Origin: Helicobacter sp. 13S00477-4
Lineage (GTDB): Bacteria; Campylobacterota; Campylobacteria; Campylobacterales; Helicobacteraceae
Reading direction: 5' to 3'
DNA: 64,000 bases
Assembly (NCBI RefSeq): GCF_002272785.1
Contig: NZ_MLAS01000002.1
Coordinates: 1 to 64,000 of the forward strand
Part shown: in pieces, positions 29,827-62,503 of the stretch
Numbering within the stretch: the stretch's first letter is position 1
How the letters are laid out: each line of letters begins with the position of its first letter
Translations under genes and position numbers: made by a program
The notes under the pieces: model-generated
Databases searched by the model: none
Told to the model about the DNA's origin: nothing
Seen by the model: only the letters and a program-made list of their open reading frames with translations

Positions 29827-29837
29827 GGGGGGGGGGG
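29827..29837. repeat. G11 homopolymer tract
   Basis: Eleven consecutive G in otherwise very AT-rich DNA. Tracts of this length are slippage-prone and mark phase-variable genes or promoters in Helicobacter and Campylobacter. Here no intact reading frame crosses it. Confidence 0.95.
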
Positions 29838-51884: not shown

Positions 51885-53846
51885 TCAATAAATTATCCTG
51901 ATTTGTTCTTTATTGACAATCGCTAAATTAAGGAAATCCTCCAAATCAATATCACTATAACCATCAATATAAATCACAAAATCTTTCATTATTTGAAGTT
52001 TTTTCCTGACTGCATCATTGATTGATAAAAGATAATAAGAATCCTCACAAAAATAAAGCTTATTTGTTATGATTTCTTCTAAAGGCAAACTCAATATTTT
52101 GCCACTAATAAGGGCAAGATTCCTAGCAATATCCAATGAACTCATCTCATTTCTATTTGAAACAAGCTTCAAGCTACCTAATTCATTAGCTATAATCTTT
52201 GGTTTATCACAAAGGCTATAGACTTTATAGCCAATATCTAAAGATTGATTGATTTTGATCAAATCATTTTCTAAACTTTTCTTAATCTTTTCTCCTGCAC
52301 GATTCACCCTTTCAATCGTAATATCACTGATAACAGGGTTTTTAGAACCTAATTCATTTTTACAAAAATCATAAGCAACCTCATCTTTCTTTTTATCAAT
52401 AGGCTCATCAAGCTGCACTAAGATAAATTGTCTGTTGCCATTATCTTGTTCATTCAGCTCCATTACAGCTTGTGCGGTAGTCCCAGAACCAGCAAAAAAG
52501 TCTAGGATAATATCTGAATGTTTGGCACCTAAACTTATTAAATCTTTAATCAAATATTTAGATTTTGTATAGTTAAAAATATCTTTATTGAAAAGATTTT
52601 TAATTTCTGCACTACTATTTGCCGTTGAATATTTAGGAGAATAAAATGTTGTCTTTCCTCTTTTACTTGGCATATCTCCTAAGCTTGGTCGTTGTTTTTT
52701 ATACAAAGAATAACCTTCTTTTGTTTTTTTAACTATCACTTCAAAAACTTCATTTTGAAATTTTTTTTCGTTCCAATACCAACTCATTTCTTTGTTATCA
52801 GTAATAGGCAATAATTCATAAGTATGTGTAGCATCTTTTTGCAAACTAAAAGTCAAACTTTTTTCATCAATGAAAATTGGAAAAAATAATTTTGGTCTTG
52901 CCGATCTAGGAGCATTTTTTCCTGTCGCTTTTAAGCTCCCACCTTCTTTCCACCAACCTATTTCATCTTGTTCCCACTCACTACTAGAATCTTCATCTAT
53001 GAGTAAAACACCCATTTTAAATAAACCACTATCTTTAGCATAAATCAAGCAATATTCTTGAGTTTCCATCATTCCACTTGAATTATCATTTCCATTAAGT
53101 TTATTAACAATACTCATTGAATAAACAAAATTTCCCTCCCCAAAAATCTCATCACAAAGCAATTTCAAATTTGCTTGCTCATTATCATCAATACTGATGA
53201 ATATCACGCCATCTTCACTTAGTAAATCTCTGGCTAATTTGAGTCTTGGCAACATAAAGGCAAGCCAACCTGTATGGCTCCTAGCAGAAGTGATATTCCT
53301 AAAAAATTTCAAAGCTTCGCTTGGTATTTCTTCATTATTTTCATTGATTTCTAACAACCCTACTTCAATCAGAATCTTTTTATAATCTTTCCTGAAATCA
53401 TCTGGATAAATGAAATTTTCATTTTTAGTATTGTAAGGAGGGTCAATATAAATCATTTTTATTTTTTCATAATAAGCAGATTTAAGGAGTTTCAATACAT
53501 CTAAATTATCCCCCCTGATGATAACATTTTGTGTTTCTTTGCACTTAGATTCTAGGGGGGGGGGGGCTAGTTTACTTTGTGTGATTTCAAGCTTGAGTTC
53601 TTTGTGAATAGGGGTAGAATAGAGTGCATTTGCCAATCCCTTCCCCGTCCAAGTGAGTTCATAACCTTGCATATTAGCATTTTTATTCACACCCAATAAG
53701 GTAGCAATAGCGTCTAAATTCACTTGATTATCAGAATCTATAGTTTGAGGAAAATGTTTTTTGAGGTTTTCAAAAAGAGGATTTTTAGATTCTCTTGAAT
53801 CTATTATTTTGATACCTTGCTTTTGTAAATTGTTTTTATCTATCAT
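51885..53846 (-). CDS. mod: Type III adenine-specific DNA methyltransferase, phase-variable
   Basis: 653 residues. Beta-class N6-adenine methyltransferase order: DPPY motif (MIYIDPPYNTKNENFIYPDD, DPPY at 135-138), a central target-recognition region, then the SAM motif DFFAGSGTTAQAVMEL near residue 450. It methylates one strand of an asymmetric site and gives specificity to the whole complex. A C12 tract (G12 on the plus strand at 53555-53566) encodes the Pro run KLAPPPLES at residues 92-100 and keeps the frame open, so the gene is ON in this sequence. Loss or gain of one base would truncate the protein near residue 100. It begins 11 bases inside the end of res. Confidence 0.95.
   Translation of the reverse strand: MIDKNNLQKQGIKIIDSRESKNPLFENLKKHFPQTIDSDNQVNLDAIATLLGVNKNANMQGYELTWTGKGLANALYSTPIHKELKLEITQSKLAPPPLESKCKETQNVIIRGDNLDVLKLLKSAYYEKIKMIYIDPPYNTKNENFIYPDDFRKDYKKILIEVGLLEINENNEEIPSEALKFFRNITSARSHTGWLAFMLPRLKLARDLLSEDGVIFISIDDNEQANLKLLCDEIFGEGNFVYSMSIVNKLNGNDNSSGMMETQEYCLIYAKDSGLFKMGVLLIDEDSSSEWEQDEIGWWKEGGSLKATGKNAPRSARPKLFFPIFIDEKSLTFSLQKDATHTYELLPITDNKEMSWYWNEKKFQNEVFEVIVKKTKEGYSLYKKQRPSLGDMPSKRGKTTFYSPKYSTANSSAEIKNLFNKDIFNYTKSKYLIKDLISLGAKHSDIILDFFAGSGTTAQAVMELNEQDNGNRQFILVQLDEPIDKKKDEVAYDFCKNELGSKNPVISDITIERVNRAGEKIKKSLENDLIKINQSLDIGYKVYSLCDKPKIIANELGSLKLVSNRNEMSSLDIARNLALISGKILSLPLEEIITNKLYFCEDSYYLLSINDAVRKKLQIMKDFVIYIDGYSDIDLEDFLNLAIVNKEQIRIIY
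53555..53566. repeat. G12/C12 homopolymer in the mod gene
   Basis: Twelve G on the plus strand, C12 in the mod reading direction, inside codons 94-98. The tract is in frame. Slippage would switch the methyltransferase on and off. Confidence 0.97.
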
Positions 53847-56733
53847 TGCTATCTTCTTGTAATGTGGATTTTAATACATCTATAAGTTTTTGTTTATTGA
53901 TTCTTGTTTGAAAAATCACCTTAATATTAGGCAAACGCCTATCTAATCCTTCAAAAAACCTTTTAGCATAATCAATCTTTTTCACTTCGTCATCAGAAAT
54001 TCCTCTGATGCTATCATAGCCTTTTGTCTCACAAACAAAAAAGATTTTACTGCCATTTTTATCTTCTATCAAATAAGCAAAATCAGGCTCATAGTTTTTA
54101 TAAGGTGTTGGGATAGAAAACTTAGGGAGTTTAGCAAAAACTTTAATCGTTTTATCATTTATGTTCATTGGATCATTTACCATAGCTTCTTTTTCAATAT
54201 CACTATCATAAACACATTTTTCATAAAGATAATGTGCTTGAGGGATACTATCTTCATCTACAAAATGCCCTAATTTTTGCACTTCTATCTCTTCTTTTGG
54301 TTTTCCATTTGGATAAAAAAGCAAATCCTGATTGCTTATGTTTAAGATGGGTTCAAAATCATAAGAAACTGACTGGATAATATTTTTATGAATCTGTTCT
54401 TTTATGATATTTTTCAAAACCCCAAAAGCAAACTTTGGATTTTTGGAAAAATGCCTGTGGTTAAGTGCATTATAAACCTTCATCACAAAATCCAAAGATA
54501 AATTTTGCTCTTTTGAAAATTCTAAAATATTTTGGGCAATAAAAGTATTGTTATTAATATCTTTTTGTGGAAGGATTTTTTCTTCTTTTATAGTGATTTT
54601 ATTATTAAAAGTATCATAATGCTTGCTTTGAATAAAAATATAATCTTGTGGGATTTCTTCTTGATTGAAAGCATTTACAATCTCTTCTATAAGTCTTTCT
54701 GTTTGAATATCTTGATAAACTATTTTAGTTTTTGCATTGATATATTCCCAAAGCTCTTTGAATTCTTGTGCTAGATTTTTTTTGATAGAGACTTTTGATT
54801 TTTGTTTATTAGCATTATTTGTTTGGAGATGTTTATTATTACTTGGTCTAAAAATCTCTAAAATAGAATCAAATTTATCGCCCAAAATATCTTTAATTTT
54901 AGAATTTTCATTCATAAGCTCATAAATTGGATTGATAATTTTAAAATTATCTGATTTTTCATCATATACAATAACATTTGCTTCTTCTAACATATTTATT
55001 ATTTTATTGGCTTGCATTTGATTAAGTCCATAAGATTTAAGCATATCAAAATCTAAAGCCTTTTGATTGAAGCTAAAGCTAGATTCTTCAATCTCTTTTT
55101 GCAATCCTTCAATAAAACCTTTTTCCTCTCCGCTTACTACGACATCAAGATAGTTGATATCATAAAACACATTGCTATCACCACCAAGATAATCACATGT
55201 GATTCTTTTCCCTTCATCATTCACGCACAACCTTAAACCACGTCCAATTTGTTGATGACGTGAGATTTCAGAACTTGAGCTTGCGAGTTTTGTGATAGTG
55301 AAGATGTTTGGATTATCCCAACCTTCCTGTAATGCCCATACACTAAAGATAAAACGCAATGGTGTATCCAAATAAAGTAATTTTTCTTTCTGCTCTAAAA
55401 TCAACTTCACGCCTTCTGCTTCTTTTTCTTCCTTACTCTTTCCATCTCCACTAAAATATCCTTGATGGACACACAAATCTCCACTAGAATCAAAATCTTT
55501 TGCCAAGTATTCTCTATAAGCTTTAGGTATATCAAGTTTTAAAATCTCTGCTCTTTTTAGCTTATAAATACGTTCAAATTCATTTTTAATAAATGGATTC
55601 TGTCCACGAAATGATTCAATATCAGGAATAAAAAAGAGTGATAAAGCCTTGATACCTTTTTCAAAAAGGCTTTGTTCTTTTTTGAAATGCAAATCAATAC
55701 TCAAAGCAATAAGCTCTGCAGTTTGAATTTCATCTAATCTGTAGCTATCTTTAGATAAAGGAATGTTGGTTTGATTACTCAATATTGCACCATCTTTAGT
55801 ATTCACCTTTATTAATTCAATCCCATTGAATTTAGGGTAATAAAGATTAGCACCTAAATCCTGTCCATAAAAAATATCTTTTTTATACTCAATATTGTCA
55901 AGAAAATAAGAAAATGTTGCTTTTTTATCCCTTGAATCTATTCTTATAAGCGAAGGTGCTTGATTTTGTCCACAAAGGGTATGAACATAAATCTGCTTGA
56001 CAAGAAAAGTATTAAATGCACTGATAGAATCCAAACAATAAGCAAGATTGCTAAGCTTATGACTTTCTTCTTTAGGAAAGGTCGCACCAAATCGAAAATA
56101 AAGATTTTGGAATTTTTTAAATACATTGTAAAATTTTTCGCCTTTGAGCAAATGAGGCTCATCAATAATGCAAATTGGCTTGAGGGAAATGATTTCTTCA
56201 AAAATACTTTGATTACTAAAAAGATTTTCATTTTGTTTATGAAGAAGATTTTTCTGATCCTTGTCAATAGAGCTATTAGTCAAAATCAAGACTGAAAGTT
56301 CATCAGTATTTTTTATATAATGACTGATGATATTTAATAGACTTTTAGAATCATTATAATAGTATGGTTTCAGATATTTTTTATATTGTGTATAAAAATA
56401 ATTTTTTGTAAGCTTGATATTTTGCTTGACTGACTCTAAAATCGCCTTACGCGGAACAAAAATAATGAATTTATTTTGTGAGTAAATCTTATTGAGTTCA
56501 AAAATAAGATTAAGATAAGTAAAAGTTTTGCCCGTACCTGTTTCCATTAAAATATCAATGTTCAGATTAGGACTCAAATCCCTAAGCGGTATTTTACAAC
56601 GACTTGAATTATAAAATTTTTCTAAACATTCTTTTAGATTTTCATTATTTTGTCTTTTAAAATCAAAATCCTTTAAAATTGAGATGATGTTATCAATACA
56701 ATGCTGTTGGTACTCTTGCTTTTCAAAAATCAC
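53836..56733 (-). CDS. res: Type III restriction enzyme Res subunit
   Basis: 965 residues. Superfamily 2 translocase motifs: Walker A DILMETGTGKTFTYLNL at about 60-76, motif II in CIIDEPHLLKG (DEPH rather than DEAD) near 190, and motif VI QQIGRGLRL near 493. The C-terminal endonuclease has the PD-(D/E)xK pattern in YEPDFAYLIE with later VCETKG, near 880-905. It hydrolyses ATP and cleaves DNA when two head-to-head sites meet, using Mod for recognition. It is upstream of mod and overlaps it by 11 bases. Mod usually precedes res in type III loci, so the order is inverted here. No frameshift is seen. Confidence 0.95.
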   Translation of the reverse strand: MIFEKQEYQQHCIDNIISILKDFDFKRQNNENLKECLEKFYNSSRCKIPLRDLSPNLNIDILMETGTGKTFTYLNLIFELNKIYSQNKFIIFVPRKAILESVKQNIKLTKNYFYTQYKKYLKPYYYNDSKSLLNIISHYIKNTDELSVLILTNSSIDKDQKNLLHKQNENLFSNQSIFEEIISLKPICIIDEPHLLKGEKFYNVFKKFQNLYFRFGATFPKEESHKLSNLAYCLDSISAFNTFLVKQIYVHTLCGQNQAPSLIRIDSRDKKATFSYFLDNIEYKKDIFYGQDLGANLYYPKFNGIELIKVNTKDGAILSNQTNIPLSKDSYRLDEIQTAELIALSIDLHFKKEQSLFEKGIKALSLFFIPDIESFRGQNPFIKNEFERIYKLKRAEILKLDIPKAYREYLAKDFDSSGDLCVHQGYFSGDGKSKEEKEAEGVKLILEQKEKLLYLDTPLRFIFSVWALQEGWDNPNIFTITKLASSSSEISRHQQIGRGLRLCVNDEGKRITCDYLGGDSNVFYDINYLDVVVSGEEKGFIEGLQKEIEESSFSFNQKALDFDMLKSYGLNQMQANKIINMLEEANVIVYDEKSDNFKIINPIYELMNENSKIKDILGDKFDSILEIFRPSNNKHLQTNNANKQKSKVSIKKNLAQEFKELWEYINAKTKIVYQDIQTERLIEEIVNAFNQEEIPQDYIFIQSKHYDTFNNKITIKEEKILPQKDINNNTFIAQNILEFSKEQNLSLDFVMKVYNALNHRHFSKNPKFAFGVLKNIIKEQIHKNIIQSVSYDFEPILNISNQDLLFYPNGKPKEEIEVQKLGHFVDEDSIPQAHYLYEKCVYDSDIEKEAMVNDPMNINDKTIKVFAKLPKFSIPTPYKNYEPDFAYLIEDKNGSKIFFVCETKGYDSIRGISDDEVKKIDYAKRFFEGLDRRLPNIKVIFQTRINKQKLIDVLKSTLQEDSNDR

Positions 56734-60612: not shown

Positions 60613-62199
60613 TTACCAGCGATAACCTAAACTCATTGTAGCAATTTTGAGCTGTCCTAACCCATCAGATTGATACATACTCCGTCGATTATCCTTAAAA
60701 GTTACTGAATACGCTACACCCAAATCAAATCCTCTGAAATTAAATTTTGCCCCCAAACCTACCATATAACCATCTGAATCTGGGATACCTATTTTATCTT
60801 GTGGGCTAGGTGCCTCATCATAAGCCAAAGAACCCATCAAACGCACTAAACTATTGGTATAAGTAACACCTAAACGATAAGTATTGGTGTCCCTCCAGCC
60901 AGCACCCATATTCATCACGCCAGCAAAATCAGCAAGTCCAACCATATTTTTCAAAGTATTGCTTGTGAAAACATTTTGATTAGCCACCATACCACTGAGT
61001 CCAGTATAAGTTGCATTAGCAAAATCAGGTGTGACTAAAAATTTACTCCCACGACTCCAAAATGTCCTCTCATACACACCTTCGATCCGTAATCTATCTT
61101 TAAAAAATGTCTGTGCATAGGCAATAGTCAATATCTCTGGCATTGTAACAGCAATATTAAGATCACCTGTAGTCAAAACATTCCCTATAGCCCCACCAAT
61201 ATAAGTAGTCGCAGATAAATTACCTTTCATATCAAATTTTACAGGTGAATTATACACGACTGAAAACATCCCATGATCAAAAACCTTTAAAGAAGCAGCC
61301 ACACGATATCCGCCGGATAGGGCTTTACCATCAGATTTTTGATAAACTTTCGCAGTGCCATAAAGATTAGTAGTTTCAGACTCAAGAGAACCCATCAAAT
61401 CCTTCATTGTACAATCAAATACCTTACAAAACTTTAATGCTAAATTTATCAATGGATTATCTTTGGGTATCAAGGCATTCAATTGATCATCATCAAGATT
61501 TAAAACCTGATCTTTGCTCAATGAAATGCCTGTGCCATCTTTGTCCAAAGGGACATAAACCACATTATTAAAACTCCCCATTGCATATAAAAGTCTTGGT
61601 GCAAAGCCTATAGAAAATCGATTTCCTATCGTATAGCTTATACTGGGTGCAAATTCAACCATCATGATAAAAACATCTTGCAAAAACTCTCCACCCTTAC
61701 CCTCCCAATTCATTGCCAAACCCGAAGGAGCAACAAAACTAGCTCCAAATGTGAATCCATTATGAGTCTTTGACTTATAAAAAAACTTTGGTAAGATAAA
61801 GTTCGTATCACCTGTAGAGCCAAAGACTACCTGCTCATCTGGAGAAGAATGATATAAATTGATAGGATCTTTCATAATCCCTGAAGCAATTTTTCCAATC
61901 TTGCTATCATCAAATTTTAAGCTTGTAGACGAATACAATCCTTGATTAGTCGTAGGCACGTCAAATTTAAATCCTGGTATTGTGATGATAGAAGTAGCGA
62001 TCTCAAACTCGCTTTTATTTTCTCCCCAATCATTTTTAAATCCCATATTAGCAGGATTATAATAGGTTGCATCTGCTCCTCTAGCCCCTGCAACATAGGC
62101 AGAACTGAGGGCTGTGGCATTAAGACTTTGTTCTTGGATTTTAAATCCATTTCCAAGAGCAAAAGAAGACAGTACAAGCAATGATAAAATCTTTTTCAT
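60613..62199 (-). CDS. FadL/OMPP1-family outer membrane transporter
   Basis: 528 residues. Signal peptide MKKILSLLVLSSFALG, the plug-like N terminus GFKIQEQSLNATALSSAY and ADATYYNPANMGF (the NPA motif of FadL), then a 14-strand barrel ending in ATMSLGYRW, aromatic at the C terminus. FadL-type channels take up long-chain fatty acids or other hydrophobic molecules. H. pylori has a homologue (HP0839). A TATAAT box lies 26 bases upstream of the start, making it the probable first gene of fadL-pseB-coaBC. Confidence 0.93.
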   Translation of the reverse strand: MKKILSLLVLSSFALGNGFKIQEQSLNATALSSAYVAGARGADATYYNPANMGFKNDWGENKSEFEIATSIITIPGFKFDVPTTNQGLYSSTSLKFDDSKIGKIASGIMKDPINLYHSSPDEQVVFGSTGDTNFILPKFFYKSKTHNGFTFGASFVAPSGLAMNWEGKGGEFLQDVFIMMVEFAPSISYTIGNRFSIGFAPRLLYAMGSFNNVVYVPLDKDGTGISLSKDQVLNLDDDQLNALIPKDNPLINLALKFCKVFDCTMKDLMGSLESETTNLYGTAKVYQKSDGKALSGGYRVAASLKVFDHGMFSVVYNSPVKFDMKGNLSATTYIGGAIGNVLTTGDLNIAVTMPEILTIAYAQTFFKDRLRIEGVYERTFWSRGSKFLVTPDFANATYTGLSGMVANQNVFTSNTLKNMVGLADFAGVMNMGAGWRDTNTYRLGVTYTNSLVRLMGSLAYDEAPSPQDKIGIPDSDGYMVGLGAKFNFRGFDLGVAYSVTFKDNRRSMYQSDGLGQLKIATMSLGYRW

Positions 62200-62320: not shown

Positions 62321-62503
62321 ATGAAAGAAATACAAGAATTGCTAAAAGCAATGAATGAGAGAGGGGGGGGGGGCGTATGAAAGCAGCATAAAAATATCAT
62401 TGATAAAATCAAAGATTTAGGATTAAAACTACTCTACTTTAAGGGATTCATTGATATGAATGAATTTATTAAAACACTCCCTAATCCCCACACAAATGGA
62501 TAG
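62321..62503 (+). pseudogene. Small ORF with promoter, G11 tract and internal TGA
   Basis: The ATG at 62321 has AAGGA six bases upstream. Sixty codons run in one frame to TAG at 62501-62503, except for a TGA at codon 20 (62378-62380). The first part reads MKEIQELLKAMNERG, then four glycines from G11 (62363-62373), valine and TGA; the second part (KQHKNIIDKIKDLGLKLLYF) is convincing protein sequence. One base fewer in the tract plus one extra A in the following GAAAG would give a continuous reading (GGGAYEKQHKN). It is either decayed or held in an OFF state. The family is unknown. Confidence 0.6.
62363..62373. repeat. G11 homopolymer tract in the small ORF
   Basis: Eleven consecutive G in the plus-strand coding direction at codons 15-18 of the small ORF, a typical slippage tract. 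Confidence 0.95.

What the first reader, a model, noticed from the sequence alone, without database searches (positions are those of the whole stretch)
53555..53566. Phase-variable Type III methyltransferase (putative phasevarion) captured in the ON state
The mod gene has C12 in its reading direction at codons 94-98, and the tract keeps the DPPY and FAGSGT motifs in frame. One base lost or gained would stop translation near residue 100. In Helicobacter, Neisseria and Haemophilus, such mod genes control many genes through methylation. Res is intact and would lose its specificity partner when Mod is off.
Basis: partly seen in the sequence, partly recalled or inferred. Interest (0 to 1): 0.85.

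Follow-up and report, generated by a model that had tools for sequence, protein, structure and literature searches.

The report
Switchable Type III DNA methyltransferase in Helicobacteraceae
A bacterium of the Helicobacter family carries a DNA-marking (and DNA-cutting) enzyme whose gene holds an error-prone run of twelve identical bases that can turn it on and off at random; this is a new example of a well-known kind of switch, and this genome seems to hold at least five more switchable DNA-marking genes.

Summary
A pure 12-base G run lies at 53555-53566 (C12 in the gene), inside a full-length Type III mod gene (51885-53846, minus strand, 653 aa) at codons 94-98. Tract lengths 9, 12 and 15 keep the frame; the other lengths tested (8-16) stop at 96-101 aa. 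About 0.001 such runs are expected in the window by chance. The protein is a beta-class Type III Mod by sequence and fold. Its partner Res (965 aa, all motifs present) lies upstream of mod and overlaps it by 11 bp, so switching Mod off should leave res translation intact. A congeneric species has C13 at the same codon, also in frame. Another has no tract in mod but an out-of-frame C11 in res; a third keeps only a decayed remnant at the same site. The assembly holds 53 long G/C runs; of 28 inside ORFs, 14 are in frame and 14 out, as expected for slippage switches. At least five other DNA-methyltransferase or R-M genes carry such runs. Slippage ON/OFF switching of this R-M system is therefore very likely. 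A gene-regulating phasevarion is plausible but untested: no reads, methylome or transcriptome. New member of a known kind.

The parts
53555..53566 (-). C12 homopolymer (G12 on + strand), codons 94-98 of mod: candidate slipped-strand switch
   Evidence: same position C13 in congeneric genome G001
51885..53846 (-). mod: Type III beta-class N6-adenine DNA methyltransferase, 653 aa, in frame as assembled
   Evidence: PF01555 E=9.7e-35; PADLOC MTase_III E=3.6e-136; PDB 6k0w, 4zcf, 7dsu by sequence and fold
53836..56733 (-). res: Type III restriction subunit, 965 aa, upstream of mod with 11-bp overlap; TGTGKT 65, DEPH 191, PD...ExK endonuclease motif 882-905
   Evidence: PF04851, PF19778; REase_III; EcoP15I Res 4zcf_C E=6.5e-82; motifs
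52611..53030 (-). target recognition domain of Mod (about residues 273-412), the specificity region
   Evidence: 27% identity to congeneric G001 while flanks are 62-73%; 70-71% to a Mod of another subfamily in genome G107
53532..53576 (-). Mod linker (residues about 91-105) that carries the tract: low-confidence coil between N-terminal region and catalytic domain
   Evidence: AF2 pLDDT <50 at 96-103; length-variable in homologues

Best explanation
A Type III restriction-modification operon (res then mod) whose Mod subunit is switched ON/OFF by slipped-strand mispairing in a C12 tract at codons 94-98. ON (tract length a multiple of 3): Mod is made, one strand of its (unknown) asymmetric site is methylated at adenine, and with Res the cell restricts unmodified DNA. 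OFF: a stub of about 97-100 aa, no methylation; Res is still translated because it lies upstream, but is inactive (and perhaps unstable) without Mod. The population is thus a mixture of restricting/methylated and permissive/unmethylated cells, and methylation changes may also alter expression of some genes. Shown: the tract, the frame arithmetic, gene identities and order, the same-position tract in a sister species, and the genome-wide even mix of in- and out-of-frame tracts. Inferred: slippage in vivo, co-transcription, methylation activity, any effect on gene expression.
For: C12 and frame simulation. Type III Mod by families, sequence and fold; intact Res. G001, a congeneric species with the locus at the same chromosomal site, has C13 at codon 95 with a different flank and is also in frame, with ON lengths n = 1 mod 3, although fourfold sites of the two genes are only 46% identical (28 of 61). 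The tract borders a low-confidence linker likely to tolerate 2, 3 or 4 prolines. Genome-wide: 53 tracts of 9 or more, 28 inside ORFs, 14 in frame and 14 out. Homologous mods in other genera carry G tracts elsewhere, some in frame and some out of frame.
Against: No read-level or multi-isolate evidence: the genome collections used hold one genome per species, so length variation within this species is unseen. Tract length may be an assembly consensus. No evidence on methylation, target motif or transcription. In EcoP1I/EcoP15I Mod raises the amount of Res (PMC3874151), so in OFF cells Res may be degraded rather than just idle.
Confidence: 0.85

Rival explanations
1. Phase-variable restriction (phage/DNA defence), not gene regulation, is the selected function: ON/OFF switching hedges between phage resistance and DNA uptake, and any transcriptome change is incidental. 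(A rival about the purpose of the switch, compatible with the best explanation's mechanism.)
For: Res is intact with all motifs; in congeneric G005 the tract is in res and out of frame while mod is intact, which switches restriction without switching methylation; five other R-M/MTase genes in this genome carry tracts.
Against: Literature phasevarions in H. pylori show expression changes with modH (PMC3230613); nothing here measures either effect.
Confidence: 0.5
2. A true phasevarion: switching of this Mod reproducibly changes expression of a set of unlinked genes through methylation. (Also about purpose; compatible with the best explanation's mechanism.)
For: Analogy with modH5 (PMC3230613) and modA/modB/modD/modM (PMC5149525); one-strand adenine methylation is expected of this family.
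Against: Not tested; the intact Res gives the system an obvious other role.
Confidence: 0.4
3. The tract is stable or a consensus/assembly artefact, and Mod is simply constitutively expressed.
For: Draft genome of 45 contigs; homopolymer calls of this length can be wrong; G005 and most other homologues have no tract at this codon.
Against: A tract of another length at the same place in G001; 14 of 28 intragenic tracts in this genome are out of frame; chance expectation about 1e-3.
Confidence: 0.07
4. OFF cells still make an active N-truncated Mod by internal initiation (TTG118 or ATG131), so the tract changes the form of Mod rather than switching it off.
For: In-frame TTG at 118 with a G-rich stretch upstream and ATG at 131.
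Against: Such starts remove the invariant G112-D113-N114 block and begin close to the DPPY motif at 135, and the N-terminal region is well conserved in res-then-mod relatives (54-71%).
Confidence: 0.05

Closest known systems
H. pylori HP0592/HP0593-type system (M.HpyAXI, 5'-GCAG-3'), with PDB 6k0w as nearest solved Mod
   Same: Same Mod fold and motif order; 6k0w is the best match by sequence (E=2.9e-149) and fold. A res-then-mod relative, 48% identical over full length, is present in genus g2 (L068). GCAG assignment of hp0593 from PMC3936762. That L068 or 6k0w is HP0593 itself was not tested.
   Different: L068 carries no G/C run of 8 or more in or near mod, and the TRD is different (24%), so GCAG should not be assumed here.
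H. pylori modH phasevarion (HP1522 / JHP1411)
   Same: Type III Mod switched by a homopolymer run (9-15 G in modH, PMC3230613) with a variable TRD
   Different: The modH-like genes recovered here have mod-then-res order, a G tract near residues 465-473 after motif I, and about 35% identity; they form a separate clade.
Neisseria/Haemophilus modA and Moraxella modM phasevarions
   Same: Repeat tract inside mod, ON/OFF by frame, allelic TRDs (PMC5149525, PMC3311624)
   Different: Tetra- or pentanucleotide repeats in those; mononucleotide here (repeat types in part from own knowledge).
Congeneric G001 and G005 res-mod loci
   Same: Same chromosomal site beside the SNF-type transporters; same operon order
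   Different: G001: C13 in mod, 56% identity overall, unrelated TRD (27%). G005: no tract in mod, but out-of-frame C11 in res.

Membership tests
Type III restriction-modification system | Mod of the N6_N4_Mtase (beta) class with motif IV (DPPY), then TRD, then motif I (FxGxG) | tested here: met
   DPPY 135-138, TRD about 273-412, FAGSGT 451-456; fold match to 6k0w and EcoP15I Mod
Type III restriction-modification system | Adjacent Res with SF2 helicase motifs and endonuclease domain | tested here: met
Type III restriction-modification system | One-strand N6-adenine methylation of an asymmetric site; ATP-dependent cleavage | not testable with these tools
   needs methylome and biochemical assays
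Phase-variable mod gene | Long simple sequence repeat inside the ORF whose unit length is not a multiple of 3, so that length changes shift the frame | tested here: met
Phase-variable mod gene | Tract length differs among isolates or cells | tested here: inconclusive
   C12 here against C13 at the same position in a congeneric species; no within-species data
Phasevarion | Expression of unlinked genes changes with the ON/OFF state | not testable with these tools
   needs ON/OFF populations and RNA-seq
modH (H. pylori) subfamily | mod-then-res order, G tract after motif I, clade with HP1522-like genes | tested here: not met
   res-then-mod order, tract at codon 94, separate clade (which clade is modH was judged from gene order and tract position, not from named sequences)

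The most novel reading that the evidence does not exclude
The conserved res-mod locus of this genus is a relocating switch: in two species slippage controls Mod (methylation and restriction together), in a third it controls only Res, and the TRD is swapped with other Mod subfamilies. In this genome the Type III switch is one of at least six independently switching DNA-methyltransferase genes, so cells of one clone could carry dozens of combinatorial methylomes.
Probability: 0.4. Interest if true: 0.5.

Novelty: new member of a known kind. Interest (0 to 1): 0.35.

Why it matters
It extends phase-variable Type III modification to a res-then-mod subfamily in a non-pylori Helicobacteraceae genus. 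It also offers a clean natural comparison, in orthologous loci of sister species, of switching Mod (methylation plus restriction) against switching Res alone. That could help separate the defence and gene-regulation explanations for why R-M systems are phase-variable. By itself the locus is ordinary: a published survey cited in PMC7394358 puts repeats in 17.4% of Type III mod genes.

Tried and rejected
Treating it as a modH allele: rejected on gene order, tract position and tree. Chance or codon-usage origin of the tract: rejected. Assigning GCAG specificity from HP0593: rejected, the TRD differs (24%) from that of the g2 res-then-mod relative. Local enrichment of tracts near mod: not seen; the window has 3 runs of 9 or more in 64 kb, and the genome 53 in 1.78 Mb. 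The Atack 2018 mod survey is not held; its 17.4% figure is cited through PMC7394358. Rfam found only a tRNA in the window.

Full report
What is there. The run of 12 G at 53555-53566 is exact. It lies in a 653-codon ORF on the minus strand (51885-53846) as C12 at codons 94-98. Simulated lengths of 9, 12 and 15 keep the ORF open (652-654 aa); 8, 10, 11, 13, 14 and 16 stop after 96-101 aa. A first-order model expects about 3e-5 (G) and 1e-3 (C) runs of 12 or more in the window. CCC is 18 of 193 proline codons in 14 ORFs of the window, so ordinary codon choice does not explain it.

What the gene is. The protein matches Pfam N6_N4_Mtase (9.7e-35) and PADLOC Type III MTase (3.6e-136). Among solved structures it matches 6k0w (Mod), EcoP15I Mod and Mbo45V by sequence, and the same three lead the fold search of an AlphaFold2 model (mean pLDDT 72.5). 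DPPY is at 135-138 and FAGSGT at 451-456. The tract-encoded residues border a coil segment with pLDDT below 50 (96-103), between the N-terminal region and the catalytic domain. That linker varies in length among homologues, so two, three or four prolines should be tolerated. Upstream, overlapping by 11 bp, is a 965-aa Res with TGTGKT (65), DEPH (191) and an intact endonuclease domain.

Operon logic. Because res precedes mod, loss of the mod frame should not stop res translation. Work on EcoP1I and EcoP15I, as reviewed in PMC3874151, shows that Mod raises the amount of Res and suggests that it protects Res from proteolysis. The expected OFF state therefore has no methylation and no restriction. 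This is inference.

Sister species. The res-mod pair sits beside the two SNF-type transporters in this genome, in G001 and in G005. G001 has C13 at codon 95, in frame, with ON lengths of 10, 13 and 16. Outside the TRD and tract the two genes share 70% of nucleotides, and 46% of fourfold third sites (28 of 61). Retention of a long C run at the same point suggests that the switch was kept, although slippage itself helps keep such runs pure. In G005 mod has no tract and is intact, but res has C11 that puts it out of frame. In G006 only a mod fragment of about 44 codons remains at the site.

Family view. Among the mod homologues fetched from the family and from named genomes, tracts occur near codon 53, at 94, near 409, at about 440-455 and at about 465-473, in separate branches. 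Codon 94 is used only by the G000/G001 pair (support 0.996). Several homologues with tracts are out of frame as assembled, for example L079 and L084. Switch tracts therefore appear to have arisen repeatedly in this enzyme family. Genes of the H. pylori modH type (9-15 G, PMC3230613) form a different clade with mod-then-res order.

Specificity. The TRD (about 273-412) is 27% identical to the sister species' TRD while the flanks are 62-73% identical. It is 70-71% identical to the TRD of a Mod of another subfamily in genome G107, and 47-49% to those in G063 and G012. Movement of Type III TRDs between non-orthologous genes and across species is already described for Helicobacter (PMC3983042 citing Furuta and Kobayashi). 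The recognition site here is unknown.

Genome context. The assembly (45 contigs, 1.78 Mb) holds 53 G/C runs of 9 or more. By a mechanical test, 28 are inside ORFs open on both sides, 14 in frame and 14 out of frame. That mixture fits free slippage, though it is not proof for any one gene. Besides the Type III mod, tracts lie in a Type IIG enzyme (out of frame), a Type ISP enzyme with two tracts (one in frame; one out of frame inside its specificity domain), an N6-MTase followed by an S-like piece (out of frame), an HsdS between its two TRDs (out of frame), and a PglX/MTase-like gene (out of frame). As assembled, the Type III mod is the only one of these six with every tract in frame.

Verdict. 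Phase-variable Type III R-M is very likely; 'phasevarion' remains a hypothesis. This is a new member of a known kind. The more interesting points are the sister-species contrast (switch in Mod against switch in Res) and the number of tract-bearing DNA methyltransferase genes in one genome.

Noticed in passing
Own genome G000:C13:15625, C15:172101 and 173116, C22:2184, C26:74864 and 75500, C37:7738 (loci L160, L162, L163, L135, L153): Five further R-M/DNA-methyltransferase genes with long G/C tracts, all with at least one tract out of frame as assembled: Type IIG, Type ISP (two tracts, one in its specificity domain), N6-MTase plus S-like piece, HsdS between its two TRDs, PglX/MTase-like. Possible combinatorial methylome switching.
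   Followed up: partly
L125, L126, L127, L128, L129, L130 (contig ends of C4, C14, C15, C36, C45): A multi-copy block of about 150 bp flanked by a C10-11 tract and a G10-11 tract, carrying a shared promoter region and leader (MKKTYLKISTIVCLIAYGGG...) in front of different exported proteins; the G tract sits in the leader, some copies in frame and some not. Looks like a family of phase-variable exported proteins with a shared switch cassette.
   Followed up: partly
L134, L147, L158, L161 (G000 C18, C15, C11, C13): Large exported, autotransporter-like ORFs with G/C tracts just before the signal peptide (e.g. ...FIPIISLVLSAFLTSFTAQLKADD...), one at a contig end.
   Followed up: no
G005:C2, L121:6262-9300: Orthologous res in a congeneric species carries C11 that puts it out of frame (636 aa against 994-995 aa at lengths 10 or 13) while mod is intact: switch on restriction only.
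   Followed up: yes
window 62363-62373 and 29827-29837: Two further G11 runs in intergenic DNA; the first lies about 165 bp upstream of a FadL-like outer-membrane protein gene (60613-62199, -), possibly affecting its promoter.
   Followed up: no
G006:C7, L122:7494-7610: Decayed mod fragment between ybgC and the SNF transporters: loss of the R-M system in a sister species.
   Followed up: yes
G000 C45:20000-37000 (L136): Six C10-11 tracts within 17 kb that includes surface-sugar/biosynthesis-type genes (AMP-binding, formyltransferase, glycosyltransferase family 8), several out of frame.
   Followed up: no
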